In this document: positions 1 through 61,600 of the stretch, piece by piece
How positions within the stretch are numbered: position 1 is the stretch's first letter
How the letters are laid out: each line of letters opens with the position of its first letter
DNA from: Meghimatium bilineatum
Taxonomy: Eukaryota > Mollusca > Gastropoda > Stylommatophora > Philomycidae
Direction of reading: 5' to 3'
Length of the DNA stretch: 64,000 nt
Assembly: GCA_034231615.1 (NCBI GenBank)
Contig: CM067311.1
Coordinates: forward strand, 27,432,015 to 27,496,014
Translations under genes and position numbers: made by a program
Notes under the pieces: generated by a model
The model's input: only the letters and a program-made list of their open reading frames with translations
Databases searched by the model: none
What the model was told of the DNA's origin: nothing

Positions 1-1812
1 TTCAGCTAAGAAGAAAAGGACACTTGATGAAGAAAGGCGAGTATTTCAAGAAAAATGGGAACTACATTATTTTTGTGCAATAGTAAATGGAAAGATACAT
101 TGTTTAGTATGCAATAATAGCATTGCCACGCCAAAAGAGTACAACTTAAAAAGACATGAAACCAACCATCGATCTTGCGATAAACATGTGTGCTTAATGT
201 GTGTTTCAGGACTCCAGGAATGGAAGACTAACTTGATACAGCAACAGACATGTTTTACAAAAATAGATCAAGCCAATGTCGCTTCCGTTACTGCAAGCTA
301 TGAACTCAGCCGAATGGTCGCCATGAGTGGGAAATCTTACAGTCAAGAAGATTTCGTAAAGTATTGCCTTGTAAAAACTGCTGACATTGTGTGCCCACAG
401 AAAGCACAGTTATTTAAGGGTATTTCGTTAACCAGGAATACTGTTGCTGGACGGATTGATGAAATGCCAGATGATTTGAAACAACAGTTGAAGGCTGCAT
501 CATCCAAATTTGAACATTTTTCTATTGCTATTGATGAGACCGTTGACATCACTGGAATAGCACATCTTGCAGTTTTTATTAGGGCATGTGACAGTGAATT
601 TAATATTTATGAAGAACTAATTGAACTAATCCCAATGCATAAGACAACAGCGAGCGAAGACATCTTTGAAAAACTCGAGCGGATTCTGCATGACTATGAT
701 TTTGATTTGAGTAAACTTGTATGTTTAATCTACTGACGATGCTACGAATATGGTTGGCAGACATAATGGTGTTGCTGCCAAGTTGCCAACAAAAATTGAG
801 ACCTCGTATCCAGATTCATCATTTGCACATTTTCACTGCATTACTCATCAGCAAAATTTGTGTTCAAAGATTTTAAAATTGAATCATGTGCTTAGTGTGG
901 TCACAAAAACTGTGAATTTTATCAAATGCAATGCTCTCAACCATCGTCAATTCAGTCAGCTATTAGAAGACATGGATAGTCAGTTCACCGATGTTCCGAT
1001 CTACACAGCAGTCCGTTGGTTGTCGTGTCACAAAGTGCTTAAAAGATTTTATTTGCTGAGACCAGAAATTACTTTATTTTTGGAGATGAAAGGTAAAAAC
1101 ACAGATGAAATAAAATTGGGTCCAGGATCTAGATTTTGCTGTGGACATTACTGCACATTTAAGTGATCTTAATTTGAAATTACACGCCAAAAACAAACTC
1201 ATCACTCAGTTGTACGACGATATCAAATGTTTCATTACAAAAATAAGCTTATGGAAGACACAGTTGTCACGTGAAAATTTGATTCATTTTCCTAACTGCA
1301 AAGAACTGAAAAACCATGCCAATTCTGAATCTGTACTTACCTTTGCAAAATATGAGAGTCACCTAGATTTATTGTCAAAAGAGTTCCAGGAAAGATTTAG
1401 TGATTTCTCATCTTTTGAATACCATTTTGCATTATTATCTGCACCATTCAACTTTGATGTTGTTAAAGGAGAGGAAAACTTGCAGATGGAGCTATTAGAA
1501 ATGCAGTCTGATTCTACACTCAAAGCAAAGTATCTAGAAGTCGGGATACCTGGCTTCTATTCATACCTTCCTGAAAAGTTTACAATCTTCAGAAAGTTTT
1601 CAACTAGGATTATGGCAATGTTCGGTTCCACCTATGTGTGTGAACAGTTATTTTCCTTCATGAAATTAACAAAAACTTCTCAGAGAACAAGGTTGACCGA
1701 TGAACACTTTTCATCCCTGATGAAGATCGGAACTGCAAATACATTTCAGCCAGATATACGACAAATTGTCAGGAAAAAGAGGCATCAAACCTCAGGACAA
1801 AACACTGATTAA
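1..1812 (+). mobile_element. hAT transposon copy A, transposase body (GTF2IRD2-like), broken
   Basis: This is a cut-and-paste transposase of the hAT superfamily, resembling the domesticated GTF2IRD2/Charlie8 type. The reading frame is open from base 2, so the 5' end lies outside the window. In order I see a BED-type zinc-finger region (CLVC, then H..TNH, about bases 100-170), the catalytic-core motif FSIAIDETVDITG near 520, the core motif TDDATNMVGRH near 735, CITHQQNLCSKIL near 840, and the C-terminal hAT dimerisation block CEQLFSFMKLT near 1640. Two frameshifts break it, near 730 and near 1110-1140. The coding region ends at the TTAA of 1809-1812 and the normal 3' terminus is missing there. 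It resumes at 21565. Compared with copy B at 27107-28888, the C-terminal 110 residues differ at about six positions. The family call is confident; the subfamily is by recall. Confidence 0.88.
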
Positions 1813-5636: not shown

Positions 5637-7975
5637 ATGAAGAGAACAAAGTGTGAATCAATCCTAGTTGGTTCATGGAATGTTCGGACACTTACGGATA
5701 TCTCAGATGTAAACAGACCAGAAATAAGAACAGCACTAATTGCTAAAGAATTGGCCCGTTATAATCTGGATATTGTTGCACTTAGTGAAACGCGGTTTGC
5801 AGATGAGGGTCAGTTGACAGAGAGAGGTGGAGGGTATACATTCTTCTGGATAGGACGTAAAAACACAGGCGTGAATCAGGTGTTGATTTTTCTATAAAAC
5901 CATCTCTGGTGCAGAAACTTCCAGGTCTGCCTCGAGCAATTAGCGATCGGTTGATGTCGTTGCGATTAAAAGTGAGCAAAAATACATTGGATCACCACCT
6001 CTATTAAATGCCGATTCGTCGAAGCTTCTCACTGACAAAAATGACATCTTAAATGGTTGGGCTGAACATTTTGAAGAAATCCTAAACAAACCATCAGTAA
6101 TAAATGAAGAAGTCATAAACAGAATGCCACAACTTGGGATAAAAGAAGAACTCGATATACCTCCAAGCAGTCAAGAGGTTATGATAGCGATTAAACAAAG
6201 ATCAAATGATAAAGCTCCTGGTTTGGATGCCTTACCTGCTGAAATTTATAAAAATGGCGGACCACTGCTGATTAAAAAAAAACTAACTGACATTTTTGGT
6301 ATTTTCTGGAACTCAGGTACATTGCCTCAATATCTAAAAGATGCTTCTATAGTACACCTATATAAAGGCAAAGGTACCATAGTCTTGCGATAATCACAGG
6401 GGCATATCACTTTTGTCTATAGCTGGTAAAATTCTTGCTCGTGACATACTCAATAGATTAAATAACTCACTATTAAACGAGCTACTCCCAGAGAGTCAGT
6501 GCGGATTTCGTGCAGGTCGTGGTACAGTTGATATGCTATTCGCTGTACGACAAATTCAGGAAAAGTCACAGAGCAACATAGTGAACTCTTAGCAACATTT
6601 GTGGACTTAACTAAAGCATTCGATACCGTTAACAGAGAAGGACTGTGGAAGGTGCTTACAAAGTTCGGATGTGCCCCAAAACTTGTCACCGTGATACAAT
6701 TTCATGACGGTATGATGGCTAGTGTTATCTGCGACGGAGGAGTATCTCCTGCATTCCCTGTCACAAATGGTGTAAAGCAGGGATGTGTGCTGGCCCCTAC
6801 TCTTATCAGCCTGTTATTTACGTCCATGCTAACGGAAGCACACCATAGTAATGAAACAGCTGGCATAATGATCAATTACAGAACAGATGGTGGTCTTTTC
6901 AATTAACGTCGTCTAAAAGCAAAAAAGAAAACTAAATATGTTAGAGAATTACTTTAACCTGACGACTGTGCATTGTATGCTGACTCTGTCGTAAACATGC
7001 AGAGCACCATAGACCGCTTCTCACATGCCTGCAACAACTTTGGTCTCACTATTAACACCCAAAAATAAACCACATACGCCATGCACCAAGCAACATCAAA
7101 TAGCCAACATACTGCTATTTCTATAATCGTCAATCAGGAAAAACTGCAGGTAGTCGACAATTTTACTTATCTTGGAAGCACTCTCTCTCTCGCGATGTCA
7201 ACATTGATGTGGAAATTAACAAAAGACTGGCAAAAGCTAGTGCTGCATTTGGCAGATTACGCAACAATGTATGGGACAGAAGATGTATAAGAACAACCAC
7301 CAAACTTCAAGTATATCATAATGCTGTTATACCAACCCTACTATATGCTTGTGAAACATGGACAGTGTATGCTAGACATGCAAGAAAATGAAATCATTTC
7401 CATCTTACCTGCCTACATAAATTACTAAACATCCATTGGTGGGACAAAGTACCAGACTACGAGATCTTGGAAAAATCAACCCCAATAAGCATCGACACAA
7501 TACTTATGAAGGCGCAGACACGCTGGGCAGGCCATCTTGTGCGTATGGAGAACTCACGTCTGCCAAAACACATATATTATGGATCACTCAAGGCAGGATT
7601 TCGAAAAGCTGTTGGACAGAAAAAGCACTTCAAAGACACGCTCAAGTCATCACTGAAACATCTTAATATTGACGTAGGCGTTTGGGAGAGCCTCGCTCAG
7701 CATAAAACAGCATGGCGTTACAGCATTAGAACGGGAGCACTAGCGGCGGAAGAGTCCAGACAAGACAGAAGCGGGCATGTAGAAAAGAAAAAAACATCTC
7801 AACCTCACATAGATACCCTGTATTGTTGTCATTCTGTAAAAGAACATTTTGTGCGCGCATTGGATTTATTAGTCATTTAAAAATGCACTATTAACTTTAT
7901 TATTTTTATTATGTATTGTTATTATGGTTGAGTTTTTGGTCATCGTCCATTACGACGGACGAACATCATCATCAT
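5637..7975 (+). mobile_element. LINE with AP endonuclease, reverse transcriptase and C2H2 tail, broken
   Basis: Non-LTR retrotransposon in its natural order. An apurinic-type endonuclease N-terminus (GSWNVRTL, then ALSETRF) covers 5637-5895. After a deletion of most of the endonuclease comes a reverse transcriptase: NDKAPGLDALPAEIY at 6205, ESQCGFRAGRGT at 6490, VDLTKAFDTVNREGLW at 6602 and NGVKQGCVLAPTL at 6768. The catalytic YADD box is damaged (PDDCALYAD near 6960). Then come LQVVDNFTYLGSTLS at 7147, LLYACETW at 7341, RWAGHLVRM at 7530 and a worn zinc-finger tail near 7820. The 3' end has GACGGACGAACATCATCATC at 7951. At least six frameshifts or stops. Related fragments lie at 31525 and 33754. 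Clade is RTE-like but unsettled. Confidence 0.88.
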
Positions 7976-13240: not shown

Positions 13241-14041
13241 ATAAAGATCAGTGGTTCTCAAAATGTAATTAGGTCCACGTTTGGGGCTATATATTTGAAG
13301 GGAGGGGGATAATTGCACCAAAAAATGAAACTATGGCGCAGATTCTTCCAGATCTGCGACACAAAAATATGTTTTTGAATACTTCTATTTTTTTACAAAA
13401 CTGCCCACAAATATCACAGCACAAGGGGGAAACGATGGCTATCTGAAACAGCTCTGGCGGAAAGCGCTACTGCACTGTCTAACTACTGCACTGGAGCTGC
13501 TAACTACAGAACAGTTCTTTGATGGAATCCATATCAGCATCTGACCTGTAGGAAAACGAGGAAGAAGGAGAAAAGAATTATGCGACGCATAAGATATACG
13601 CTAATAATAATCCTTGAGAAAATATGACAAGCTTTTATCTGGTGTATAGGAATTAATCTCTAGTGCTTGGAACAACACATCGGCTGGAAATACGAGGGCT
13701 GGGGCAACACAATGCAATATAAGGAAAAACGGATTTAGATACAAATGGTGTCAATATGTATACACACGATATACTAGCGAATAGACGCAAAGACATACGA
13801 AGTTTTGAATAAGAAACCATCATCAGGACAAACGATAGCTGACTAGCATTAAATAGAAAGACACATATGACGAAATGGGAGGCAAGGGATGATGGAAGTG
13901 AGAGAGAAAGAAGTGAAGCACAAGTGGGTAGTAAGGGAGTGATATTACGGACGATGTGATCAACCCTGGTAACAGGAGATAAAAAGGACATTGAGATCTG
14001 GTCAACAAGACATAGATGCTTTCTATCTTAGTTCTCACTCT
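13241..14041. other. No recognised gene
   Basis: Two overlapping minus-strand frames of about 100 codons (13653-14116) are serine/leucine-rich with no motif and are probably chance. TGTCTAACTACTGCACTGG and its near-copy lie around 13475. Confidence 0.55.
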
Positions 14042-19800: not shown

Positions 19801-20291
19801 ATTCTGACAACACTGTGTATGAAAAAAAATTATGGTGCTTTATGGGGAGATGTGGCCACATCACGTGTCCATAGTCCAACTTTTTAATATTGTTGAGTAA
19901 GAAAGACATCTCCAAATAATCACATGTATATTTTGATAATTTTGTGTTTTTTGTTCCAAATTTCTGTACCAAATTTATCAATGTGACACTCCTACGACCC
20001 TGACGGACTATGGGTTTTATTACTATATCAGTATCTTTTGCCCCCCTCATCTTCTCCTACCACTGCCATTTAACTATGATCAAATTAAATGACGCGACTA
20101 ATGCATGCAATGACATAGCCAGTACAATGTGAACGATTGGCTTTCATCCAATCATATCGCACGTACAACGTGAACGATTGACTTTCAAACCACAAGCTAA
20201 TTCAACCAAGTTGGGTCTGTGAAGTGAACCAAAAAACCCCTCTACCACCGAGCCAACATATGGAGAAAATGTGTGTTTTCAAACAGTGTTC

Positions 20292-20451
20292 CTCGCCGAA
20301 GACGAGTGTTGGGCCATTGGCGCAAATAAAACGGCGACACAACGCATTTCCAATCTCTGGACTACATCCTGCTGGAAATATAGTAGGACCATTGTCCTGT
20401 TACAAGAGATATCCAGCGGGAGATTGAGAATGAAAGCTGAAGAAGAAGAAG
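20292..20451 (+). mobile_element. SINE-like family B copy with target duplication
   Basis: Unit of about 160 bases: CTCGCCGAAGACGAG, GGCCATTGGCGCAAATAAAA, CTCTGGACTACATCCTGCTG, then GAGATTGAGAATGAA and a (GAA)n tail. AAACAGTG(T/C)TC flanks it at 20281-20291 and 20452-20462. It matches the minus-strand copy at 33096-33256. I could not place a clear tRNA promoter in the head, so the class is by structure (tail plus duplication). Confidence 0.75.
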
Positions 20452-20783
20452 AAACAGTGCTCAGAACAGAATAAACTTCTAGAGATAGTGCCCACTGCAA
20501 TTGTTTGATATTCAACACTGAATCAACAAATTTTTACTTCCAAGGCAGGAAGTCTCCATCTCCTGATGTTTTTGGCAGTTGGTGAAAACTGTGACTTTAT
20601 TGGCACTTCATAGAACTAAAAGGTTTAGCTTGATGTGTAATTTTAAATTTAGCTAGCTGACAAAATTAGGTTTGCCTCTTCTGCTATAGATGTAAAACTG
20701 GTTACCAAATAATGTAGCAAATGTTTGTAGTGCTTAGATGGCAGGAGTAAGTTCAGCCTACAACTTACAGCTGTATATTTCCA

Positions 20784-27106: not shown

Positions 27107-28888
27107 CAGGTGTGTCAAACTCAAAAAGCACCATGGGCCGCATAAGATACTTTGAGTATGCCGGTGGGCCACACTAACAAATCTGAGAAACACTGTAATC
27201 TTATTGAATTATATTTAATTAATTTGCACGCCTACTACAACGGTTTTATTAAGCTAACGCCCCACAACGCCAAATATAACAATTGTAATGCAACATTTAT
27301 TTAAGAACATTCAATCATTTTTACTGTTTAATCAGTGTTTTGTCCTGAGGTGTGAAATCCAACATTTATTTAAGAACATTCACTTATTTGTACTCTTTAA
27401 TCAGTGTTTTGTCCTGAGGTTTGATGCCTCTTTTTCATGACAATTTGTCGTATATCTGGCTGAAATGTATTTGAAATTCCGACCTTCATCAGGGATGAAA
27501 AGTGTTCATCGGTCAGCCTTGTTCTCTGAGAAGTTTTTGTTAATTTCATGAAGGAAAATAACTGTTCACACACATAGGTGGAACCGAACATTGCCATAAT
27601 CCTAGTTGAAAACTTTCTGAAGTTTGTAAACTTTTCAGGAAGGTATGAATAGAAGCCAGGTATGCCGACTTCTAGATACTTTGCTTCGAGTGTAGAATCA
27701 GACTGCATTTCTAATAGCTCCATCTGCAAGTTTTCCTCTCCTTTAACAACATCAAAGTTGAATGGTGCAGAGAATAATGCAAAATGGTATTCAAAGATGA
27801 TAAATCACTAAATCTTTTCTGGAACTCTTTTGACAATAAATCTAGGTGACTCTCATATTTAGCAAAGGTAAGTACAGATTCAGCATTGGCATGGTTTTTC
27901 AGTTCTTTGCAGTTAGGAAAATGAATCAAATTTTCACGTGACAACTGTGTCTTCCATAAGCTTATTTTTGTAAAGAAACATTTGATATCGTCGTACAGCT
28001 GAGTAATGAGTTTGTTTTTGCCTTGTAATTTCAAATTAAGATCACTTAAATGTGCAGTAATGTCCACAGCAAATGCTAGATCCTGGACCCAACTTCCATC
28101 TTTTATTTCATCTGTGTTTTTACCTTTCATCTCCAAAAATAAAGTAATTTCTGGTCTCAGCACATAAAACACTGTAAGATTTTCCACTCATGGCGACCAT
28201 TCGGCTGAGTTCATAGTTTGCAGTAACGGAAGCGACATTGGCTTGATCTATTTTTGTAAAACATGTCTGTTGCTGTATCAAGTTAGTCTTCCATTCCTGG
28301 AGTCCTGAAACACAAATTAAGCACACATATTTATCGCAGGATCGATGGTTGGTTTCATGTCTTTTTAAGTTGTACTCTTTTGGCGTGGCAATGCTATTAT
28401 TGCATACTAAACAATGTATCTTTCCATTTACCATTGCACAAAAATACTGTAGTGCCCATTTTTCTTGAAATACTCGCCTTTCTTCATCAAGTGTCATTTT
28501 CTTCTTAGCTGGAAGTGCTGTAGCCATTTTAAACGGAGTCAGTTTATGCAGTACTTCATTAAAACAAATAATATAATTACCGGCACGATTCCACAAGATA
28601 CAATTTATTATTGTTTTAAAATTTTAACATGGCAATAACAATCTGTTTGCTACTTCTGGTGAATGTTGCCAATTGTCATAGATAGAAAACCCTTACTATC
28701 TTAAAACAGCCGTATTGTTTTACTATACGTGGCACTATGCCAGATTTATGTTTTATACACCCAGTTTAAAGTATTAAAACTGCAATTTTCGCCATTAAAT
28801 GAGACAATTACAGTATTCTTTGTGTGGTCCGCACACGTGCTTGCAAAGGGCCGCATGCGTCCCATTTTCTGCACGTTTGACATGCCTG
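27107..28888 (-). mobile_element. hAT transposon copy B, internally deleted, with both termini
   Basis: Both ends are present: CAGGTGTGTCAAACTC at 27107 and, reverse-complemented, CAGGCATGTCAAACGT ending at 28888. The minus-strand coding parts match copy A: KRHETNHRSCDKYVC with a BED-like finger near 28350, LLEMQSDSTLEAKYLEVG near 27700, and CEQLFSFMKLT near 27560. About 700 bases are missing relative to copy A (its 345-1047), joined after the GKSYS motif, so the catalytic core is largely gone. Flanking octamers ATATACAG and TGCTAGAA both carry central TA but do not match each other, so the duplication is lost or an end has been replaced. Confidence 0.9.
27292..27425. repeat. 69-bp duplication at the 3' end of hAT copy B
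   Basis: AACATTTATTTAAGAACATT through TCAGTGTTTTGTCCTGAGGT occurs twice, at 27292-27360 and 27361-27425. The duplicated part includes the transposase stop region. Copy A and the 21565 fragment show one copy, so this arose in copy B. Confidence 0.85.
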
Positions 28889-30232: not shown

Positions 30233-30335
30233 TCTTTCTAGACTATAGGTTCCCAAAGTTGGCGGTTCACACCCCAGTGGGCGCTGACGATTTCTACTGA
30301 TAAGGGGGGGGGCGATAGTAAGTTTAGAAGTAATT
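30233..30335 (+). mobile_element. Single hAT-type terminus
   Basis: TATAGGTTCCCAAAGT and the following GTTGGCGGTTCACACCCCA fit the hAT terminal pattern CAGTGGTTCCCAAA. It is preceded by TTCTAGAC, matching the nTCTAGAn target preference of Buster-type hATs. The matching other end was not found. G runs of 9 and 11 follow at 30304 and 30336. Confidence 0.4.
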
Positions 30336-30399: not shown

Positions 30400-32240
30400 A
30401 TCTATGTATTGTCATTTCCAGTTGTGCCGTTAAGCATGGGGGGGGGCGGAATCGAAATTTCTGTCGTTGGTCATTTAGGTTGCATAGGCCATGGTAATCC
30501 CGTATCTATTGAATGTTTCTTTGTTTGTCTCTGCCGATCTAGTTCTTGGTCTTCCGCGTGCTTTGTAGCCCGTTCTTCTGCTGATGTATGCACGAAGGGC
30601 TAGTTGTGCAGGTTCCATTCTCATGACGTGACCAAACCATCTGGTTTGTTGCCTCTCAATGTAGTCTTGATTTGAGATAGTCTTTACTTCTTTCGTGATA
30701 TCTTCATTCTCCGGCGACCTCTTCTCGTAACATTTATAGCTTTCCTCAAACATCTCATTTCACAAACTCTGATCTTTTTCGCTAGTGTTTTTATCAATGG
30801 CCATGTTTGACATTGGTAAACCACAGAGTTAGTATTAAAATACTGTTTATAAATTGTCGTTATGTATCCAGGCAGATTGATGGGTTTTTAAGAATTGGTG
30901 ACATCTGCTAGGTCACAGCATTGGCTTTTTTTGCACATTGTTTCAATCTCTCTGTCGAGTTTGCTATCATCCATAAATATGTTTCCTAGTTATTTCAACT
31001 CTGGGACTACCTATAGTTATGTACCATTGAGAGATACATTTAACTGGCCTTGCATTCTGCTTATTTTCATAGTCTCTTGTTTAGGTGTGTTTAGTTTCAT
31101 ATTGTGTTGTTCGCTGGTTGTATGGAGTAAGTGTGTGTGCCGCAGTCATTCGTTTTCAAATTCGTATATTAAACATTGACCATCTGCAAATAGCAGTTCG
31201 TTGAATGAGCTGTGATCTTCATTTGATGCATCTGCAGGTATGAATTTGTTTCTTGGTTTCTGCTTCTTTTGTTATCCTGTCCATGTATGTTACGAACAGA
31301 AGTGGTGATAGTACTTGTCTAATGCCTGTTTTTATTTCAAATGGGCATGTTGTGCCCTCAGTAGTCTGATTGCGTTATGGCAGTTTTGTATAAAGCTCTT
31401 ATTTTGTATAATAATTGTCCATTTACTCCATAGTTCTCCAATATTAGCCACAGAGTCGACTTCGTCAAATGTCTCTTTTTTTTGGTTGATGAAGGCGATG
31501 TTGAGTTGTGGGTCGTATTCAAGTATCGGCACTAGGGGCGGAAGAGTACAGACAAGATACTGCAAGACAGAAGCGGGCACGTAGAAAAGAAAAAAACATC
31601 TCAATCTCTATTGTTGTCAATTTTGTAAAAAAAACATTTTGTGCGCACCTTGGATTTGTTAGTCATTCAAAAACGCACTATTAACTTTCTTATTTTTATT
31701 ACTTATTGTTATTATTATTATGGTTGAGTTTTTGATCATCGTCGATTACGACGAACGAACATCATTCAAGTGTCTTTTCGCTCAGCTGAAGTAGCGCAAA
31801 AATAGCATCTGTGCATCCTATACCTTTCCTGAAATAAAATTGTCTTATTTAGCTGGGGGTTCTATTATCAGTCTTACTCTCTGTTCTATGATTTTTTAGT
31901 ATATCTTTTCTATGTGGCTAAACAGAGATATGCCTCTGTACGTCTCACACTTTCTTTTGTTGCCCTTGTTTTGTCCATATGAGTACAATTATTGCTTTCT
32001 GTCAGTCTTCTAGTACTTGTTTTTCTGACCATGCTTCTATAAATATTCACTATAGTCAACTTACACCAACGTCTTTGCACTCCAGGATGGCTTAGGTTGT
32101 TATGCCATTAACGCCAGGTGATTTGTTTCGCGGGTTGTTCTTTTTATATTCCTCTATTTCACGGACTAGTATTTCTGGTTCTGGAACACGTGAGTATCTT
32201 AGAGTGAGAGTTTCCTGTGTTGGTTGATGGGCTGTACAAC
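30400..32240 (-). mobile_element. LINE reverse transcriptase and C-terminus, split by another LINE
   Basis: Read from right to left on the minus strand: LVREIEEYKKNNPRNKSPGV near 32150 (the 'KSPG' motif), a middle block to 31772, then after the inserted piece 31525-31763 it resumes as LEYDPQLNIAFINQKKETF near 31510, then GIRQVLSPLLFVTYMDRITK near 31300, LLFADGQC near 31180 (worn YADD) and RQQTRWFGHVMRMEPAQLA near 30640. The C-terminus reads GRPRTRSAETNKE. Numerous stops. Its 3' end also occurs alone at 41740. Confidence 0.75.
31525..31763 (+). mobile_element. C2H2-LINE 3' fragment inserted with an 8-bp duplication
   Basis: GGCGGAAGAGTACAGACAAG and GCGGGCACGTAGAAAAGAAA match 7744-7790 of the LINE at 5637-7975; the tail is GACGAACGAACATC. 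ATTCAAGT flanks it at 31517-31524 and 31764-31771. The frames of the host LINE close up when the insert is skipped. Confidence 0.8.
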
Positions 32241-33095
32241 TCTTTAGAATGCTCTAGCCACCTTGTTTACATATCTTTACATATTATCATTAGTTGCCAT
32301 TCACGTAGAAAATATCAAATGGCTCGAAGTAGGAAAAATTATATAATTTGGTTTGCTTGTGAGTGGGGGGTGGACGTTACAACATTTATACATTTGTGTC
32401 TTGCAAAGTGGGCGATGACCTAAAAAAGTCTTGCAAAGTGGGCGATGACCAAGGCGATGACCTTGGTTCTAGACCAGCGGTTCTCAGCCTTCCTAATGCC
32501 GCGACCCTTTAATACAATTCCTCATGTTGTGATGACCCCCCCCCCCAACCACCAACCATATAATTATTTTCGTTGCAACTTCATAACTATAATGTTGCTA
32601 CTGTTATGAATCTTAATGTAAATATTTGAGATGCAGGGTGTATTTTCATCGTTACAAATTGAACATAATTAAAGCATAGTGATTAGTCACAAAAATAATA
32701 TGTGATTATATATTGTGAAATATTTATTTCTATTTACAAATAAATGAAATTGTGATGAACTCCTCTTGTGCTTTCTCGGGAACATATTCAACTTTGACTG
32801 TGAATAGGCTTTTGACATGTGCAAATGGGGTGTCTGTTAAATTTGGAAAGTACGAAGACTTTCTTTCAAGCATGTGCAGGTTTTATTTCACAGAAATTAT
32901 TATCGTAATCCTTTTGTCTGGTTCAATGTCATGTTCATCAAAGAAAGCAGATAAGGTTGGCAACATGTAAATTCTATTTTCATCCTTTTTTTTTTTTTTA
33001 ACAACAGCTGAAGTTTCATTTGGATTGATCGGATATTTTGAGACAAATCGAAGCATGTTGCATTTGGTCCTTGCAGTGATAAATCTAACTCATTC

Positions 33096-33256
33096 TTCTT
33101 CTTCTTCATCGTTCATTCTCAAACTCCTGCTGGATCTCCCTTGTAGCAAGACCATTGTCCTACTAGATTTCTAGCAGGATGTAGTCCAGAGAATGGAAAT
33201 GCATTGTTTCGCCGTTTTATTTGCGCCAATGGCCCGACACATCCGTCTTCGGCGGG
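33096..33256 (-). mobile_element. SINE-like family B copy inserted in the hAT
   Basis: Flanked by TAACTCATTC at 33086-33095 and 33257-33266. On the minus strand the order is GCCGAAGACGGA, CATTGGCGCAAATAAAACGG, ACTACATCCTGCTAG, GAGTTTGAGAATGAA and a GAAGAAGAA tail. The hAT frame reads through if the insert and one duplication are skipped. Confidence 0.85.
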
Positions 33257-33753
33257 TAACTCATTCAAGATGGCAAAGATGTCAACCAAGTAAATTATGT
33301 TCTGCAGTTTACTTTTATAGCTGAAGCGTGCTTCGAATTGCGGTCTTGCTTTCTGATTAAAAAATGATTTGAGTTCATCACGAAGCTCAAAATCACTTAA
33401 AAAATCTTTTCCTCTCAACAACCATTTCACTTCAGTGTGAAATAGCAGAGCGTTGTTCGGCGCATCAAACTTGTAGCACAGTTGCGAAAACAATCGACTG
33501 TTTAAAGTAGTCGCCATTACTAAATTGACATAACTTATGACGCTTTTCATTACTTCTTGTAACTCTTGTGGTAGCGCCTTCGCTGCTAATATTTGTCGAT
33601 GAATCATACCGTGAGTTCCGATGACATTTAGTGACTCAATCTGTACCAAACGTTGAAATCTAGATCGACATCCTAACATAGCCGGAGCACCATCTGTGCA
33701 AACACCATAAACTTTTTCCCACGACAAGAGATCTTATGCTCTTTCAGAAATGT

Positions 33754-34257
33754 GATGATGATGTTTGTCCGTCGTGATCGACGATGACCAAAAACTCAAC
33801 CATAATAATAATAACAATAAATAATAAAATAATAAAGTTAATAGTGCGTTTTTAAATGACTAGCAAGTCCAATGCACGCACAAAATGTTCTTTTACAGAA
33901 TTGACAACAATAGAAGGTATCTGTGTGAGGTTGGGATGTTTTTTGTTTTCTACGTGTCCGCTTCTGTCTTGCAGTTTCTTGTCTGAATTCTTCCGCCGCT
34001 AGTGCTCCCTTTCTAATGCTGTAAGCCATGCTGTTCTATCCTGAGCGAGGCTCTCCCAAGCGCCTACGTCAATGTTAAGATGTTTCAAAGATGACTTGAG
34101 CGTGTCTTTGAAACGCTTTTTCTGTCCACCAGCTTTTCGAAATCCTGCCTTGAGTTCTCCATAATATATTTGTTTTGGCAAACGCGAGATGCTTATTGAG
34201 GTTGATTTTTCCAAGACCTCGTAGTCTGGTACTTTGTCCCACCAATGGATGTTTAGT
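33754..34257 (-). mobile_element. C2H2-LINE 3' fragment inserted in the hAT
   Basis: Minus strand reads IHWWDKVPDYEVLEKSTSIS, GELKAGFRKAGGQKKRFKDT, LKHLNIDVGAWESLAQDRTA, then FYCCQFCKRTFCACIGLASH, a well-kept C2H2 finger. Same family as 5637-7975 and a better-kept C-terminus. The tail is GATGATGATG at 33754. AAATGT flanks at 33748-33753 and 34258-34263 look like a short target duplication. Confidence 0.82.
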
Positions 34258-34739
34258 AAATGTACCAGCTCTGCCAAATACATCACGTGCAGTAGTTATC
34301 GTTTCAAGCGGTTTAAAAAAAATAAAAATAAAAAAAAAAAAAAAAAAAATGAAATATAAAAGTAGAAACTCATCTTTAAAGTCGCCATGAATAATAAACC
34401 TCACGTAAACCAGTAACTGTGAACAGTTTGCAATGTCTGTAAATTCAATAAGCTGGATACTAAATATTGGAAGTTGGGCAGATTTCATTTCCTGGATTAC
34501 CTGATCAAGAATATCAGCAGGCATGTCGTCTATTTTTCCTCGGCCAATGGCGTTAGATAAGGACATTGATCTCAGTTTCGTAACAAATTCATCTCCGATC
34601 ATAACTGTGGGTAATACTATTACATTTTTTTAACATACATGTTACTATCACCGGGGGGGGGGGGGTAGTATCGTAATTGATTGGCAGTATAGAAGACTTG
34701 TTCGCTAAATTAAGTTAGATCTCCATGCGCTACGTGTTT

Positions 34740-34810
34740 TGATTATTGTTTGACTTTCAATTGGTTACTATTTATATACTTAGAATCGCATGCCAAAAAT
34801 AGTCAAGGAT
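34740..34810. mobile_element. Hairpin-MITE core fragment
   Basis: TTTCAATTGGTTACTATTTA and CGCATGCCAAAAATAGTCA align with the core of the MITE at 2935-3170. Arms not recognisable. Confidence 0.4.
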
Positions 34811-34820
34811 GCTCTGTTCT

Positions 34821-34955
34821 AAAGAATCAGCCTGTCCAAGACATCATGTCTCTTTAAGTGTCCAAAAAAATCAGCCTGTCCAAGACATCATGTCTCTTTA
34901 AGTGTCCAAAAAAATCAGCCTGTCCAAGACATCATGTCTCTTTAAGTGTCCAAAA
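34821..34955. repeat. 44-bp tandem repeat, 3 copies
   Basis: Unit AAATCAGCCTGTCCAAGACA plus TCATGTCTCTTTAAGTGTCC. Copies nearly identical. Confidence 0.95.
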
Positions 34956-35273
34956 GACCGTATCTTCCTTTTTGTGATTGTATTTAGAAGTCATTTTTAA
35001 AATTAAATTCAGTATTTTAAAAACACTTCAATGTTCTTTTTTTCTGTCCATGATATTTGTTGAATCTTTTTTTCAAGCATTTCATTTCAAATTGATTTAC
35101 CCTTCATGATGTTGTCTTGTTTAAATCTCTTAAAGGCCGAAATAGTTGGCTATATATACATCACTGTAGCGGCCATTCTCGTCCGATTGACACACGGTTA
35201 TTTCGGTTGATGTCTGTTACCAGTTCCATATGAATAGACATGCTAAATTTTAATGCTGACATTATTACCGGTA

Positions 35274-35420
35274 ATGGCAGCAACCAGTGTTGTTTTTCGA
35301 TCGTTTTTAACAGCTGTGATTTCCGAACTGTGCAAGGATTATTATGACGTTCAATTTTGGTCAAAACTTTGTAAAAATGGACCGGCCTATGATTCAGATG
35401 ATGTTGATATGCAATTTTAA
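35274..35420 (+). CDS. Possible host coding fragment, 48 codons
   Basis: Reads MAATSVVFRSFLTAVISELC, then KDYYDVQFWSKLCKNGPAYD and SDDVDMQF before a TAA. The amino-acid mix is protein-like and not repeat-derived. It lies in a CpG-bearing stretch (35165-35350, 35540-35560) that shows no transposon match. The same frame after the stop (NGIQENVNASDFDG) also looks coding and ends at a G|GTAGTA possible donor. This could be a first exon with an error, or a pseudogene. No family recognised. Chance is possible at this length. Confidence 0.25.
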   Translation: MAATSVVFRSFLTAVISELCKDYYDVQFWSKLCKNGPAYDSDDVDMQF

Positions 35421-42232: not shown

Positions 42233-42702
42233 TGTTCTTTCACTAACTCTCCAGCAATTAACTGGTACAGTGTAACTTCTTTCACTAACTCTCCAGCAAT
42301 TAACTGGTACAGTGTAACTTCTTTCACTAACTCTCCAGCAATTAACTGGTACAGTGTAACTTCTTTCACTAACTCTCCAGAAATTAACTGGTACAGTGTA
42401 ACTTCTTTCACTAACTCTCCAGAAATTAACTGGTACAGTGTAACTTCTTTCACTAACTCTCCAGCAATTAACTGGTACAGTGTAACTTCTTTCACTAACT
42501 CTCCAGCAATTAACTGGCACAGTGTAACTTCTTTCACTAACTCTCCAGCAATTAACTGGTACAGTGTAACTTCTTTCACTAACTCTCCAGCAATTAACTG
42601 GTACAGTGTAACTTCTTTCACTAACTCTCCAGCAATTAACTGGTACAGTGTAACTTCTTTCACTAACTCTCCAGCAATTAACTGGTACAGTGTAACTTCT
42701 TT
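42233..42702 (-). repeat. 42-bp minisatellite, ~11 copies
   Basis: Unit TTCTTTCACTAACTCTCCAG plus CAATTAACTGGTACAGTGTA and AC. Two minus-strand frames stay open throughout (14-residue units KEVTLYQLIAGELV and ERSYTVPVNCWRVS). Two adjacent units share a C-to-A change (AGAAATTAAC), showing spread by neighbouring duplication. Confidence 0.96.
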
Positions 42703-46694: not shown

Positions 46695-47568
46695 CTTGAG
46701 TGAGGCAGTATCACATAACGTTCTGTCAGGAGTGCAGCATATATGTCTGTGCCAACTAGTTCATCATTTCAGTGTGGCAGTATCACATAACGTTCTGTCA
46801 GGAGTGCAGCATATATGTCTGTGCCAACTAGTTCATTATTTCAGTGTGGCAGAATCACATAACGTTCTGTCAGGAGTGCAGCATATACGTCTGTGCCATC
46901 TAGTTCATCATTTCAGTGTGGCAGTATCACATAACGTTCTGTCAGGAGTGCAGCATATATGTCTGTGCCATCTAGTTCATCATTTCAGTGTGGCAGTATC
47001 ACATAACGTTCTGTCAGGAGTGCAGCATATATGTCTGTGCCATCTAGTTCATCATTTCAGTGTGACAGTATCACATAACGTTCTGTCAGGAGTGCAGCAT
47101 ATATGTCTGTGCCATCTAGTTCATTATTTCAGTGTGGCAGTATCACATAACGTTCTGTCAGGAGCGCAGCATATACGTCTGTGCCATCTAGTTCATCATT
47201 TCAGTGTGGCAGTATCACATAACGTTCTGTCAGGAGTGCAGCATATATGTCTGTGCCAACTAGTTCATTATTTCAGTGTGGCAGTATCACATAACGTTCT
47301 GTCAGGAGTGCAGCATATATGTCTGTGCCATCTAGTTCATCATTTCAGTGTGGCAGTATCACATAACGTTCTGTCAGGAGTGCAGCATATACGTCTGTTC
47401 CATCTAGTTCATCATTTCAGTGTGACAGTATCACATAACGTTCTGTCAGGAGTGCAGCATATACGTCTGTTCCATCTAGTTCATCATTTCAGTGTGACAG
47501 TATCACATAACGTTCTGTCAGGAGTGCAGCATATACGTCTGTTCCATCTAGTTCATCATTCTTTCAGT
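46695..47568 (+). repeat. 72-bp minisatellite, 12 copies, open over 315 codons
   Basis: Unit CAGTATCACATAACGTTCTG plus TCAGGAGTGCAGCATATATG and so on, period 72. A frame from ATG 46633 to 47580 stays open across all units, giving 24-residue repeats with the core SHNVLSGVQHICLCHLVHHF. Variants are mostly single-base. Cys and His recur regularly, but no known fold matches. The unit length is a multiple of three. Openness of this one frame over 12 units is expected once one unit lacks stops. Treated as a repeat, with a coding possibility noted. Confidence 0.95.
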
Positions 47569-54845: not shown

Positions 54846-55152
54846 CTATATAGTTGTAGAAAAGTAAAAGTAGTAATAGTAGTAGTACTTGTAGTAGTAA
54901 TTAGCAGTTGTAGTTAGTAATAGTAGTATTTGTAGTAATAGCGGTAGTGGTAGTAGTGGCAGTAACAGTAGTAGTAACAGTAGTAGTAACAGCTTTAGTA
55001 GTAGTTGTAGTAGCTGTAATAGTAACAGTAGTAGTAGTAGTAGTAACAATATTAGTAGTAGTAGTAGTATTAGTAACATCAGCAGTAGTAGTAATAGCAA
55101 CAGCAGCAGTAGTAGTAGTAACATCAGCAGTTGTAGTAATAGCAACAGCAGC

Positions 55153-55183
<31 letters not shown>

Positions 55184-55257
55184 ACATCAGCAGTAGTAGT
55201 AATAGCAACAGCAGTAGTAGTAGTAGTAACATCAGCAGTTGTAGTAATAGCAACAGC

Positions 55258-55288
<31 letters not shown>

Positions 55289-55419
55289 ACATCAGCAGTA
55301 GTAGTAATAGCAACAGCAGCAGTAGTAGTAGTAGTAGTAGTAGTAGTAACATCAGCAGTAGTAGTAATAGCAACAGCAGTAGTAGTAGTAGTAACATCAG
55401 AAGTTGTAGTAATAGCAAC

Positions 55420-55459
<40 letters not shown>

Positions 55460-55572
55460 ACAGCAGTTGTAGTAATAGCAACAGCAGCAGTAGTAGTAGT
55501 AACATCAGAAGTTGTAGTAATAGCAACAGCAGCAGTAGTAGTAGTAACATCAGCAGTTGTAGTAATAGCAAC

Positions 55573-55603
<31 letters not shown>

Positions 55604-57829
55604 ACATCAGCAGTAGTAGTAATAGCAACAGCAGCAGTAGTAGTAATAGCAACAGCAGCAGTAGTAGTAATAGTAGTAGCAGTAACAGTTGTAATAGCAG
55701 TGCAGCAGCTGTAATAGTAGTAGTAGTATTAGAAATAGTAGCAACAGTTGTAGCAGTTATAACTTTTATCGTGGTAGTAGTGATAATAGTAGTAGTAATT
55801 GTTGTAATAGTATGATTAGCAGCAGCGACAGTAACAATAGCAGTAATAACAACAGCAACAACAGTCGTAGTAGCAGTAGCATTAGCTGTAACAGTAGTAG
55901 TAGTTGTTGTTGTTGTAATATTATGATTAGCCGCAGCAACAGCAGTAACAGTCGTAGTAGCAGCAGCAATAATAGCAACAGTAGTAGTAGTAGTATCAGC
56001 AGTAACAGTAGTAGTAATATCAGTAGTAGTAGTAATAGTAGCAGCAGCAGTAACAGTGGTAGCAGCAGCAGTAACAGTGGTAGCAGCAGCAGTAACAGTG
56101 GTAGCAGCAGCAATACCATTAGTAGTAGTAGTAGTAATAGTAGTAGCAGCAGCAGCAGCAGTAACAGTGGTAGCAGCAGCAGTAACAGTGGTAGCAGCAG
56201 TAGTAATAGTGGTAGCAGCAGTAGTAGTATCAGTAGTAGTAGTTATAGCAGCAGTAACAGTGGTAGCAGCAGTAGTAATAGTGGTAGCAGCAGCAGTAAC
56301 AGTGGTAAGCAACAGCAATACGAGTAGTAGTAGTATCAGTAGCAGTAGTAACAGTAGTAGCAGCAGCAGTAACAGTAGTAGCAGTAACAGTAGTAACAGC
56401 AGTAACAGTAGTAGCAGCATTGACAGTAGTAGTAGTAGTAGTAGTAGCAGCAGCAGCATCAGCATCAGTAGTAGTAGCAGCATCAGTAGTAGTAGCAGCA
56501 TCAGTAGTAGTAGCAGCATCAGTAGTAGTAGCAGCATCAGTAGTAGTAACGCCAGCAGTAGTAGCAGCATCAGTAGTAGTAGCAGCAGCAGTAGTAGTAG
56601 CATTAGTAGTAGTAGCACCATTAGTAGTAGTAGCATCAGCAGTAGTAGTAGCATTAGTAGTAGTAGCAGCATTAGTAGTAGTAGCAGCAGCAGTAGTTGC
56701 AGCATCAGCAGTAGTAGCAGCAACAGTAGTAGTAGCATCAGTATTAGTAGTAGAATCAGCAGTAGTAGCAGCATCAGTAGTAGTAGCACCATTAGTAGTA
56801 GCAGCAGTAACAGTAGTAGTAGCAGCAGCAGTAACAGTAGTAGTAGCAGCAGTAACAGTAGTAGCAGCATCAGTAACAGTAGTAGTAGCAGCAATAACAG
56901 TAGTAGCTGCATCAGTAACAGTAGTTGCAGCAGCAGCAACAGTAGTAGCAGCAATAACAATAGTAGCAGCAGTAATAACAGTAGTACTAGCAGTATCAGA
57001 AGCAGTAACAGTAGTAGCAGCAGCAGTAACAGTGGTAGCAGCAGCAATACCAGTAGTAGTAGTATCAGTATGAGTAGTAATAGTACCAGCAGCAGTAACA
57101 GTGGTAGCAGCAGCAATACCAGTAGTAGTAGTATCAGTAGCAGCAGTAACAGTAGTAGCAGCAGCAGTAACAGTAGTAGCAGCAATAACAGTAGTAGCAG
57201 CAGCAGTAACAGTAGTAACAGCAGTAACAGTAGTAGCAGCATTGACAGTAGTAGTAGTAGTAGTAGTAGTAGCAGCATCAGTAGTAGTAGCAGCATCAGT
57301 AGTAGTAGCACCATTAGTAGTAGTAGCAGCAGCAGTAGTAGTAACGCCAGCAGTAGTAGCAGCATCAGTAGTAGTAGCAGCAGCAGTAGTAGCAGCATTA
57401 GTAGTAGTAGCACCATTAGTAGTAGAAGCATCAGCAGTAGTAGTAGCATCAGTAGTAGTAGCAGCATCAGTAGTAGTAGCACCATTAGTAGTAGTAGCAG
57501 CATCAGTAGTAGTAGCAGCATCAGTAGTAGTAGTAGTAGCATCAGTAGTAGTAGCACCATCAGTAGTAGTAGCAGCATCAGTAGTAGTAGCAGCATCAGT
57601 AGTAGTAGCAGCATCAGTAGTAGTAGCAGCATCAGTAGTAGTAGCAGCATCAGTAGTAGTAGCAGCATCAGTAGTTGCAGCATCAGCAGTAGTAACAGCA
57701 AGAGTAGTAGTAGCATCAGTATTAGTAGTAGCATCAGTAGTAGTAGCAGCATCAGTAGTAGTAGCACCATTAGTAGTAGCAGCAGTAACAGTAGTAGTAG
57801 CAGCAGCAGTAACAGTAGTAGTAGCAGCA

Positions 57830-59709
57830 GTAACAGTAGTAGCAGCAGCAGTAACAGTAGTAGCAGTAGCAGTAACAGTAGTAGCAGCAGCAGTAACAGT
57901 AGTAGCAGCAGCAGTAACAGTAGTAGCAGCAGCAATAACAGTAATAGCAACAGCACTAACAGTAGTATCAGTAACAGTAGTAGCAGCAACAATAACAGTA
58001 ATAGCAGCAGCACTAACAGTAGTAGCAGCAGCAATAACAGTAGTAGCAGCAGCAATAACGGTAGTAGCAGCAGCAATAGCAGTAGTAGCAGCAGCAGTAA
58101 CAGTAGTAGTAGCAGCAATAACAGTAGTAACAGCAGGAATAACAGTAGTAGCAGCAGCAATAACAGTAGTACTAGCAGTATTTGCAGCTAACAGTAGTAG
58201 CAGCAGCAATAATAGTAGTAGCAGCAGCAATAACAGTAGTACTAGCAGTATTTGCAGCTAACAGTAGTAGCAGCAGCAATAATAGTAGTAGCAGCAGAAA
58301 TAACAGTAGTAGCAGCAGCAATAACAGTAGTAGTAGCAGCAATAACAGTAGTAGCAGCAGCAATAACAGTAGTAGCAGCAGCAATAACAGTAGTAGCAGC
58401 AGCAATAACAGTAGTACTAGCAGTATTTGCAGCTAACAGTAGTAGCAGCAGCAATAACAGTAGTAGCAGCAGCAATAACAGTAGTACTAGCAGTATTTGC
58501 AGCTAACAGTAGTAGCAGCAGCAATAATAGTAGTAGCAGCAGCAATAACAGTAGTACTAGCAGTATTTGCAGCTAACAGTAGTAGCAGCAGCAATAATAG
58601 TAGTAGCAGCAGAAATAACAGTAGTAGCAGCAGCAATAACAGTAGTAGTAGCAGCAATAACAGTAGTAGCAGCAGCAATAACAGTAGTACTAGCAGTATT
58701 TGCAGCTAACAGTAGTAGCAGCAGCAATAATAGTAGTAGCAGCAGAAATAACAGTAGTAGCAGCAGCAATAACAGTAGTAGTAGCAGCAATAACAGTAGT
58801 AGCAGCAATAACAGTAGTAGTAGCAGCAATAACAGTAGTAATAGCAGCAGTAACAGTAGTAGCAGCAGCAGTAACAGTAGTAGCAGTAGCAGTAACAGTA
58901 GTAGCAGCAGCAGTAACAGTAGTAGCAGCAGCAGTAACAGTAGTAGCAGCAGCAATAACAGTAATAGCAACAGCACTAACAGTAGTATCAGTAACAGTAG
59001 TAGCAGCAACAATAACAGTAATAGCAGCAGCACTAACAGTAGTAGCAGCAGCAATAACAGTAGTAGCAGCAGCAATAACGGTAGTAGCAGCAGCAATAGC
59101 AGTAGTAGCAGCAGCAGTAACAGTAGTAGTAGCAGCAATAACAGTAGTAACAGCAGGAATAACAGTAGTAGCAGCAGCAATAACAGTAGTACTAGCAGTA
59201 TTTGCAGCTAACAGTAGTAGCAGCAGCAATAATAGTAGTAGCAGCAGCAATAACAGTAGTACTAGCAGTATTTGCAGCTAACAGTAGTAGCAGCAGCAAT
59301 AATAGTAGTAGCAGCAGAAATAACAGTAGTAGCAGCAGCAATAACAGTAGTAGTAGCAGCAATAACAGTAGTAGCAGCAGCAATAACAGTAGTAGCAGCA
59401 GCAATAACAGTAGTAGCAGCAGCAATAACAGTAGTACTAGCAGTATTTGCAGCTAACAGTAGTAGCAGCAGCAATAATAGTAGTAGCAGCAGCAATAACA
59501 GTAGTACTAGCAGTATTTGCAGCTAACAGTAGTAGCAGCAGCAATAATAGTAGTAGCAGCAGCAATAACAGTAGTACTAGCAGTATTTGCAGCTAACAGT
59601 AGTAGCAGCAGCAATAATAGTAGTAGCAGCAGAAATAACAGTAGTAGCAGCAGCAATAACAGTAGTAGTAGCAGCAATAACAGTAGTAGCAGCAGCAATA
59701 ACAGTAGTA
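57830..59709. repeat. Recent ~860-bp direct duplication inside the satellite
   Basis: Blocks 57830-58689 and 58850-59709 correspond at a constant offset of 1020 bases. I found only one difference (58458 against 59478). Markers such as TACTAGCAGTATTTGCAGCT recur at 58169/59189, 58239/59259, 58415/59435, 58485/59505 and 58555/59575. Confidence 0.9.
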
Positions 59710-60110
59710 GCAGCAGCAGTAACAGTAGTAGCAGCAATAACAGTAGTAGCAGCAGCAGTAACAGTAGTAGCAGCAGTAACAGTAGTAGCAGCAGCAGTAA
59801 CAGTAGTAGCAGCAGTAACAGTAGTAGCAGCAGTAACAGTAGTAGCAGCAGTAACAGTAGTAGCAGCAGTAACAGTAGTAGCAGCAGCAGTAACAGTAGT
59901 AGCAGCAGCAGTAACAGTAGTAGCAGCAATAACAGTAGTAGCAGCAGCAGTAACAGTAGTAGCAGCAATAACAGTAGTAGCAGCAGCAGTAACAGTAGCA
60001 GCAGCAGTAACAGTAGTATCAGTAACAGTAGTAGCAGCAGTAACAGTAGTAGCAGTAACAGTAGTAGCAGCAGTAACAATAGTAGCAGCAGTGACAGTAG
60101 TAGTAGTAGT

Positions 60111-60277
60111 CAGGGCCGGTCTTAGGCCATTGCAACCTATGCGGCCGCAATGGGCCCCGCATTTCATAGGCCCATAAATTCATATTAGAATTTATTTTAT
60201 TATTCTCTTCCCTACCCAGACTGGGCCCCGCGCAATCCGTTTCGCATTGGGCCCCTCAATTGTTAGGGCCGGCCCTG
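60111..60277. mobile_element. 167-bp hAT MITE inside the satellite
   Basis: Termini CAGGGCCGGTCTTAGGCCAT and, reversed, CAGGGCCGGCCCTAACAATT. Flanked on both sides by GTAGTAGT, which also fits the host repeat, so the duplication is suggestive but not decisive. The two ends are those of the 54100 element in the opposite orientation. Confidence 0.88.
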
Positions 60278-61600
60278 GTAGTAGTTTTAGTAGCAGCATC
60301 GGTAGTTGTAGCACCATTAGTAGTAGTAGTAGCAGCATCAGTAGTAGCAGCATCAGTAGTAGTAGCATCAGTAGTAGTAGCAGCATCAGTAGTAGTAGCA
60401 GCATCAGTAGTAGCAGCATCAGTAGTAGTAGCAGCATCAGTAGTAGTAGCATCAGTAGTAGTAGCATCAGTAGTAGCAGCATCAGTAGTAGTAGCAGCAT
60501 CAGTAGTAGTAGCATCAGTAGTAGCAGCATCAGTAGTAGTAGCATCAGTAGTAGCAGCATCAGTAGTAGTAGCATCAGTAGTAGTAGCAGCATCAGTAGT
60601 AGTAGCAGCATCAGTAGTAGCAGCATCAGTAGTAGTAGCAGCATCAGTAGTAGTAGCATCAGTAGTAGCAGCATCAGTAGTAGCAGCATCAGTAGTAGTA
60701 GCAGCATCAGTAGAAGTAGCATCAGTAGTAGCAGCATCAGTAGTAGTAGCATCAGTAGTAGTAGCAGCATCAGTAGTAGCAGCATCAGTAGTAGTAGCAT
60801 CAGTAGTAGTAGCAGCATCAGTAGTAGCAGCATCAGTAGTAGTAGCATCAGTAGTAGTAGCAGCATCAGTAGTAGTAGCAGCATCAGTAGTAGTAGCAGC
60901 AGTAGTCTTAGTAGCATCAGTAGTAGTAGCAGCATCAGTAGTAGTAGCACCATTAGTAGTAGTAGCAGCAGTAGTAGTAGTAGCAGCAGTAGTAGTAGTA
61001 GTAGCAGCAGTAGTAGTAGTAGCAGCAGTAGTAGTAGCAGCATCAGTAGTAGTAGCAGCAGTAGTAGTAGTAGCATCAGTAGTAGTAGCAGCATCAGTAG
61101 TAGTAGCACCATCAGTAGTAGTAGCAGCATTAGTAGTAGTAGTAGCAGCATCAGTAGTAGCAGCATCAGTAGTAGCAGCATCAGTAGTAGTAGCACCATT
61201 AGTAGTAGTAGTAGCAGCAGCAGCAGTAGTAGCATCGTCAGTAGTAGTAGCAGCAGTAGTAGTAGTAGTAGCAGCATTAGTAGTAGTAGCAGCATCAGTA
61301 GTAGTAGCACCATTATTAGTAGTAGCAGCAGCAGTAGTAGTAGCATTAGTCGTAGTAGCAGCATTAGTAGTAGTAGCAGCAGCAGTAGAAGTAGCAGTAA
61401 TAGTAGTAGCAGCAGTAACAGAAGTAGCAGCAGCAGTAACAGTAGTAGCAGCAGCTATAACAGTAGTAGCAGCAGAAATAACAGTAGTAGCAGCAGCAAT
61501 AACAGTAGTAGCAGCAGCAATAACAGTAGTAGCATCAGTGACAGTAGTACTAGCAGTATCAGCAGCGGTAGTTACATAAGAATATTCACATTTACTACTG

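What the first reader, a model, noticed from the sequence alone, without database searches (positions are those of the whole stretch)
32467..34640. SPIN-like hAT in an invertebrate genome: horizontal-transfer candidate
The terminus from 32475 (CAGCGGTTCTCA, AATGCCGCGACCCTTTAATA, TCCTCATGTTGTGATGACC, ATTATTTTCGTTGC) reads almost like the SPIN family I remember from tetrapods. It is preceded by TTCTAGAC and joined to a Buster-type transposase. SPIN is a textbook case of transfer between distant animals. Non-coding terminal similarity this high across phyla would be hard to explain by descent.
Basis: partly seen in the sequence, partly recalled or inferred. Interest (0 to 1): 0.85.

Follow-up and report, generated by a model that had tools for sequence, protein, structure and literature searches.

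The report
Decayed SPIN-type jumping gene copy
This stretch is a broken, dead copy of a SPIN-type jumping gene, a family already known for having moved between distant animals, so it adds one more example and not a new phenomenon.

Summary
On the minus strand, 32475 to about 34605 is a remnant hAT transposon: one terminal inverted repeat and its non-coding terminus joined to transposase fragments. Among the 120 hits listed (of 241), every named protein at 70% identity or more to the best fragment is tetrapod, led by rattlesnake (79%), gecko (78%), frogs and bats (up to 76%); four unnamed proteins score 72-74%. A tunicate follows (67%), then named animals at 50% or less. In a 98-row tree the fragment joins a 48-row, mainly tetrapod clade (100/96), but AU tests on 54 rows reject no alternative. 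The copy is dead: both coding ends lost, stops, frameshifts, two retroposon insertions. The terminus matches a rodent URR1/SPIN end in 140 of 153 positions, but those letters are recalled. SPIN-like hATs in snails are in print: about 1,000 copies in Biomphalaria glabrata, and Lymnaea. Verdict: a real SPIN-type element and probable horizontal transfer, of a published kind.

The parts
32467..32474 (.). TTCTAGAC, possible 8-bp target-site duplication; no partner found
32475..32489 (-). 3' terminal inverted repeat CAGCGGTTCTCAGCC of the element, read inwards on +
32475..32757 (-). 3' non-coding terminus; 140 of 153 aligned positions equal the recalled rodent URR1/SPIN 3' end, plus one 13-nt C-rich insertion
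   Evidence: reference letters recalled
32758..33091 (-). transposase fragments in two frames; 62 of 79 and 26 of 33 residues equal to the tetrapod-type consensus; contains a stop and a frameshift; the 92-97 last residues of six relatives checked are absent downstream
33096..33256 (-). 161-bp SINE-like retroposon inserted in the transposase, flanked by exact TAACTCATTC repeats (33086-33095, 33257-33266); relative at 20288-20453, 87.5% over 168 columns
33257..33753 (-). best-preserved transposase fragment; the 155 aa of 33263-33727 used for the tree, 124 of 155 equal to the tetrapod-type consensus
33754..34257 (-). 3' piece of a LINE inserted in the transposase, flanked by AAATGT (33748-33753, 34258-34263); relatives at 7422-7974 (88% and 97% in two pieces) and, inverted, 31529-31765 (84%)
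34258..34314 (-). transposase fragment KPLETITTARDVFG...
34315..34350 (-). A/T-rich stretch interrupting the transposase reading
34351..34605 (-). most N-terminal transposase fragment kept, starting MIGDEFVTKL; 63 of 80 residues equal to the tetrapod-type consensus; about 130 N-terminal residues of 600-aa relatives and the 5' end are missing

Best explanation
The feature is a dead, truncated copy of a SPIN-type (hAT, Buster/Charlie-like) DNA transposon in a genome that is probably not a vertebrate's. Shown: a terminus with one TIR, joined to decayed transposase fragments whose closest named relatives are tetrapod proteins. Inferred: an active SPIN element entered the host germ line from another animal, directly or through a parasite or other vector. 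Its transposase bound the ends, cut and pasted copies, and left 8-bp duplications. This copy then lost its 5' end and C-terminal coding part, took two retroposon insertions, and decayed. With one end missing it should not be able to move, even with transposase supplied from elsewhere.
For:: 241 proteins at E<=1e-10 among 331 candidates, 120 listed. Named: Crotalus 79%, Euleptes 78%, Pantherophis 78%, Bufo 76%, Myotis 76%, Xenopus 75%, Nycticebus 73%, Meriones 72%; then Clavelina 67%; Palaemon 50%, Melanaphis 49%, Watersipora 47%; 48-row clade at 100/96, star-like inside, window on a long own branch (0.24); tetrapod-type residue at 31 of 40 columns diagnostic against the sister group and 41 of 49 against the far group; terminus 140 of 153 to the recalled URR1/SPIN end. 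CpG o/e 0.69; nested insertions with target duplications. SPIN-like hAT, ~1,000 copies, in Biomphalaria glabrata.
Against: AU tests on 54 rows did not reject the window grouping with the Clavelina-type rows (p 0.117), with the Palaemon-type rows (p 0.116), or lying outside the tetrapod-type rows (p 0.301); that smaller tree had no starred set holding the window among sets of up to half the rows. In one search the bootstrap had not settled. No source name visible in the list says SPIN. Four unnamed-source proteins also reach 72-74% (P0016, P0018, P0020, P0028), and Rhinophrynus and Rana rows fall outside the 48-row clade. Some vertebrates are as distant as the invertebrates (Myxine 48%, Chelydra 46%, Pelodiscus 44%). 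The diagnostic groups were drawn after seeing the tree. No database DNA reference for the terminus was found (all empty).
Confidence: 0.75

Rival explanations
1. It is an old hAT lineage inherited vertically in the host's phylum, and resemblance to tetrapod SPIN reflects constraint on the transposase and ends.
For: hAT transposases of this group occur in many invertebrates (Palaemon, Melanaphis, Watersipora, Homarus, Pycnogonum). AU tests do not formally reject other placements.
Against: Named invertebrates other than Clavelina (67%) are at 50% or below, while squamates, frogs, slow loris and several bats reach 70-79% and muroid rodents 65-72%, to a decaying copy (some bat pieces are 56-65%). 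Diagnostic columns favour the tetrapod type 31 of 40 and 41 of 49. Non-coding identity over 153 positions (recalled reference) would not come from protein constraint.
Confidence: 0.07
2. The window is from a vertebrate, or is vertebrate contamination in an assembly, so no phylum was crossed.
For: Best named hits are tetrapods. The host was never identified because the genome search did not complete. A frog, Ranitomeya, is the second hit of the neighbouring hAT.
Against: CpG o/e 0.69 over 1-54000 (0.57-0.81 in nine 6-kb blocks), whereas vertebrates are recalled at about 0.2-0.4. The element is nested with retroposons that recur elsewhere in the window, so it is resident in this genome. The LINE ORF search gave 5 hits, all without a name, so it says nothing either way.
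Confidence: 0.07
3. It belongs to a sister hAT family next to SPIN, not to SPIN itself.
For: No SPIN-labelled reference was available. Unnamed-source rows (P0018, P0020, P0028) are 89-92% identical to the tetrapod-type consensus and 72-73% to the window, so close sister families exist.
Against: The window follows the tetrapod type over the sister type at 31 of 40 diagnostic columns and the sister at 1. The distribution of close rows (Xenopus, Anolis, Myotis, a lorisiform primate, muroid rodents) is the recalled SPIN distribution.
Confidence: 0.11

Closest known systems
SPIN (SPACE INVADERS) hAT transposons of tetrapods and Rhodnius prolixus
   Same: transposase in the same clade as frog, squamate, bat, lorisiform and muroid rodent proteins; TIR CAGCGGTTCTCA; 3' terminus close to the recalled sequence
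   Different: this copy is truncated, internally deleted and decayed; identity at DNA level to a curated consensus was not measured; host not a typical vertebrate by CpG
SPIN-like hAT of snails (Biomphalaria glabrata, PMC5440852, passages seen; Lymnaea stagnalis, cited in PMC4344730, passage seen; Gilbert 2010 itself not held, recalled)
   Same: a SPIN-like hAT in an invertebrate genome; the Biomphalaria paper also reports no intact transposases of DNA elements in its assembly
   Different: the window's host is not identified, so it may be the same case or another host
URR1 hAT-Charlie elements of rodents (URR1B named in PMC10458454, passage seen)
   Same: recalled 3' end equals the window at 140 of 153 positions
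   Different: recalled as short non-autonomous elements; the window copy still carries transposase fragments
GTF2IRD2-type hAT, two copies in this window (1-1812 and about 27397-28623)
   Same: hAT superfamily
   Different: three of four pieces match proteins of the SPIN-type search, at 27-36% among the best three each; the fourth piece matches none; a separate family

Membership tests
SPIN (hAT) | transposase falls in the SPIN clade | tested here: met
   48-row clade 100/96 of 98 rows; 31 of 40 and 41 of 49 diagnostic columns. Caveat: AU tests on 54 rows not significant, and no row is labelled SPIN; the clade is called SPIN-type from its recalled distribution
SPIN (hAT) | terminal inverted repeats at both ends | tested here: inconclusive
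   3' TIR present at 32475; the other end is missing
SPIN (hAT) | 8-bp target-site duplication | tested here: inconclusive
   TTCTAGAC at 32467 without a partner, because the 5' end is missing
SPIN (hAT) | subterminal non-coding sequence shared with SPIN | tested here: inconclusive
   140 of 153 to a recalled rodent URR1/SPIN 3' end; score 118.5 against a maximum of 17.5 in 200 shuffles; no database reference found
SPIN (hAT) | consensus DNA about 96% identical between distant hosts over 2.9 kb (recalled from Pace 2008) | not testable with these tools
   no DNA of vertebrate SPIN was found; own genome unreachable, so no copy consensus
horizontally transferred transposon | patchy host distribution | tested here: inconclusive
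   named hits at 70% or more are scattered tetrapods, but four unnamed ones are also at 72-74%; the search sees proteins, not genomes, and lists 120 of 241
horizontally transferred transposon | lower divergence than host genes | not tested
   no host gene was recognised among 22 frames scanned with Pfam; host genome search unanswered
functional or domesticated transposase gene | intact reading frame | tested here: not met
   stops, frameshifts, two retroposon inserts, 92-97 C-terminal and about 130 N-terminal residues missing

The most novel reading that the evidence does not exclude
The host is an invertebrate lineage in which SPIN has not been reported, so SPIN crossed into more than the known snail lineages. 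The same genome also carries a second, younger hAT (GTF2IRD2-type, two copies 96-97% identical) whose best named relatives are in a pig whipworm and a poison frog, which would mark the host as a recurrent exchange point between vertebrates, parasites and invertebrates.
Probability: 0.2. Interest if true: 0.5.

Novelty: new member of a known kind. Interest (0 to 1): 0.27.

Why it matters
If the host is confirmed as an invertebrate, this copy is a further record of SPIN crossing phyla. The nested insertions allow it to be ordered against the host's own LINE and SINE-like activity. The general point, that SPIN moved between vertebrates and snails or bugs, is already published, so the gain is one data point for dating and mapping transfers.

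Tried and rejected
Vertical descent, vertebrate host and sister-family readings were weighed and kept as rivals. A domesticated gene was rejected because the frame is broken. Other TIR-like 12-mers with up to 2 mismatches (13249, 21701, 38740, 38766, 27184) were considered as further copies; at E up to 1 the recalled SPIN 3' end matches the window at 32475 and, over 13 bases only, at 13249. Pfam gave no transposase domain in the SPIN-type fragments. Collection scans for the terminus or transposase were empty. The host was sought through homologs of a LINE ORF (5 hits, none named) and of the neighbouring hAT (36 hits, named ones from Trichuris, Ranitomeya, Octopus, Procambarus and Cryptotermes, no host identified), and through Rfam and tRNA scans (nothing). 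AU tests did not reject alternatives. Two of three fragments were read in the wrong frame and gave no rows; they were redone.

Full report
What was checked. The quoted strings are present at the stated place. CAGCGGTTCTCA occurs once exactly in 64 kb and is expected about 0.003 times by base composition.

Anatomy. The element lies on the minus strand. From 34605 down to 32758 the minus strand reads as pieces of a hAT transposase, followed by about 280 bases of non-coding terminus ending in the TIR at 32475. The coding part is interrupted three times. A 161-bp SINE-like retroposon at 33096-33256 is flanked by exact TAACTCATTC repeats and has a relative at 20288-20453 (87.5% over 168 columns). 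A LINE 3' piece at 33754-34257 is flanked by AAATGT and has relatives at 7422-7974 and, inverted, at 31529-31765. An A/T-rich stretch lies at about 34315-34350. Homology stops at about 34605 in the stretch compared (34251-35400). The first kept residues correspond to residue 128-134 of the relatives P0004, P0018, P0020 and P0035, so about 130 N-terminal residues and the 5' end are gone. After the last kept residues, six relatives go on for 92-97 residues, which the window lacks. Stops and frameshifts occur. With one end gone, TTCTAGAC cannot be tested as a target duplication; its only other occurrence in the window is at 30236.

Relatives. The best fragment (region 285-440 of the frame translated) found 241 proteins at E<=1e-10 among 331 candidates; 120 were listed. 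Among those 120, the named proteins at 70% or more are tetrapods, for example Crotalus 79%, Euleptes 78%, Pantherophis 78%, Protobothrops 76%, Bufo 76%, Myotis 76%, Xenopus tropicalis 75%, Ranitomeya 75%, Nycticebus 73%, Meriones 72%. Four unnamed-source proteins are also there at 72-74% (P0016, P0018, P0020, P0028). Muroid rodents run from 65% to 72%, and some bat pieces are lower, 56-65%. The tunicate Clavelina is at 67%. Other named invertebrates are at 50% or less, for example Palaemon 50%, Melanaphis 49%, Homarus 49%, Watersipora 47%; so are a hagfish (Myxine 48%) and two turtles (Chelydra 46%, Pelodiscus 44%). No source name visible in that list uses SPIN as a family name; the link to SPIN rests on the recalled host list (Xenopus, Anolis, Myotis, bushbaby, murine rodents, opossum, tenrec) and on the terminus.

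Tree. Of the 120 listed proteins, 2 were dropped for short coverage (P0072, P0094) and those numbered above P0100 were left out, giving 97 proteins plus the window. The window falls in a 48-row clade supported 100/96 with snakes, geckos, Anolis, frogs, bats, slow loris and muroid rodents and a few unnamed rows. The Rhinophrynus and Rana rows lie just outside it. The clade is star-like inside, and the window has its own branch of 0.24 against a median of 0.075, as expected of a decaying copy. The bootstrap had not settled. In a smaller tree of 54 hand-chosen rows, AU tests did not reject grouping the window with the Clavelina-type rows (p 0.117), with the Palaemon-type rows (p 0.116), or outside the tetrapod-type rows (p 0.301), and no starred set of up to half the rows held the window. 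This is a result against a firm placement; 155 columns may be too few.

Diagnostic columns. Groups were drawn after seeing the tree: 46 tetrapod-type, 14 sister and 29 far rows for the best fragment, fewer for the others. Rhinophrynus, Rana, one Myotis row (P0064) and proteins numbered above P0100 were left out of the groups. The window has the tetrapod-type residue at 15 of 17, 6 of 10, 8 of 11 and 2 of 2 columns that separate that type from its sister group. The total is 31 of 40, with 1 sister and 8 neither. Against the far group it is 15 of 18, 9 of 9, 10 of 14 and 7 of 8, total 41 of 49, with 3 far and 5 neither. Of 31 differences from the tetrapod-type consensus in the best fragment, 8 are seen in no other row.

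Terminus. No database copy of the terminus was found. blastn on the same recalled letters gives 84.9% over 159 columns, gap included. The recalled SPIN 5' end agrees in 26 of 33, recalled MER3 in 18 of 22, and recalled MER5A and MER20 only across the shared TIR, 13 of 15 each; these four recalled stretches were short, 34-66 bases, so the comparison is uneven. This is a lead that needs the real consensus.

Host. No host gene was recognised among the 22 frames scanned with Pfam; a full gene search was not made.

Mechanism. SPIN is recalled as a cut-and-paste hAT. The transposase binds the ends, excises the element and inserts it with an 8-bp duplication. This copy has one end and a broken transposase and should be inert. 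The order of events is readable from nesting: SPIN inserted first, then the LINE and the SINE-like element inserted into it.

Literature. PMC5440852 (passages seen) reports a hAT of about 1,000 copies in Biomphalaria glabrata with significant identity to SPIN, and no intact transposases in that assembly. PMC4344730 (one passage) cites transfer of hAT transposons between Lymnaea stagnalis and vertebrates. PMC11614815 (passages) describes SPIN in Rhodnius as horizontally transferred. PMC4054807 (passages) reports 385 SPIN elements in painted turtle. Pace 2008, Gilbert 2010 and Gilbert 2012 were not held and are recalled.

Verdict. A real, dead SPIN-type copy, probably in an invertebrate, and a probable old horizontal transfer of a published kind. 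On checking, the odds of the four readings were rescaled to sum to 1, and the best reading was lowered from 0.80 to 0.75 because four unnamed close proteins had not been counted.

Noticed in passing
1-1812 (+) and about 27397-28623 (-): Two copies of a separate, GTF2IRD2-type hAT, 96-97% identical to each other over 774 and 341 columns. The first copy's protein is 74% identical to a Trichuris suis protein, 71% to Ranitomeya and 88% to an unnamed-source protein over 66% of its length; Octopus and Procambarus also hit. A younger element and a second possible transfer candidate.
   Followed up: partly
54869-61562: About 6.7 kb of trinucleotide-based tandem repeat (AGT with 18-45-bp higher-order units), open in several frames on both strands.
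   Followed up: no
46699-47560 and 42235-42702: Minisatellites of 72-bp units (12 copies, 97%) and 42-bp units (11 copies, 99%), both open as long repetitive reading frames.
   Followed up: no
31529-31765 and 33758-34005: Two LINE 3' fragments in inverted orientation, 84% identical, one just before and one inside the SPIN-type copy.
   Followed up: no
proteins P0039, P0042, P0044, P0047, P0048, P0049, P0053, P0054, P0055, P0058, P0060: Nine named muroid rodent proteins and two unnamed rows form one clade (100/95), 610-757 aa long. In 7 of 11 the KPQC motif could be placed, and in 6 of those it lies at residue 167-188, against 34 in P0020, so these 6 have long added N-termini. They look like one SPIN-derived gene kept in the lineage, as recalled from Pace 2008.
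   Followed up: partly
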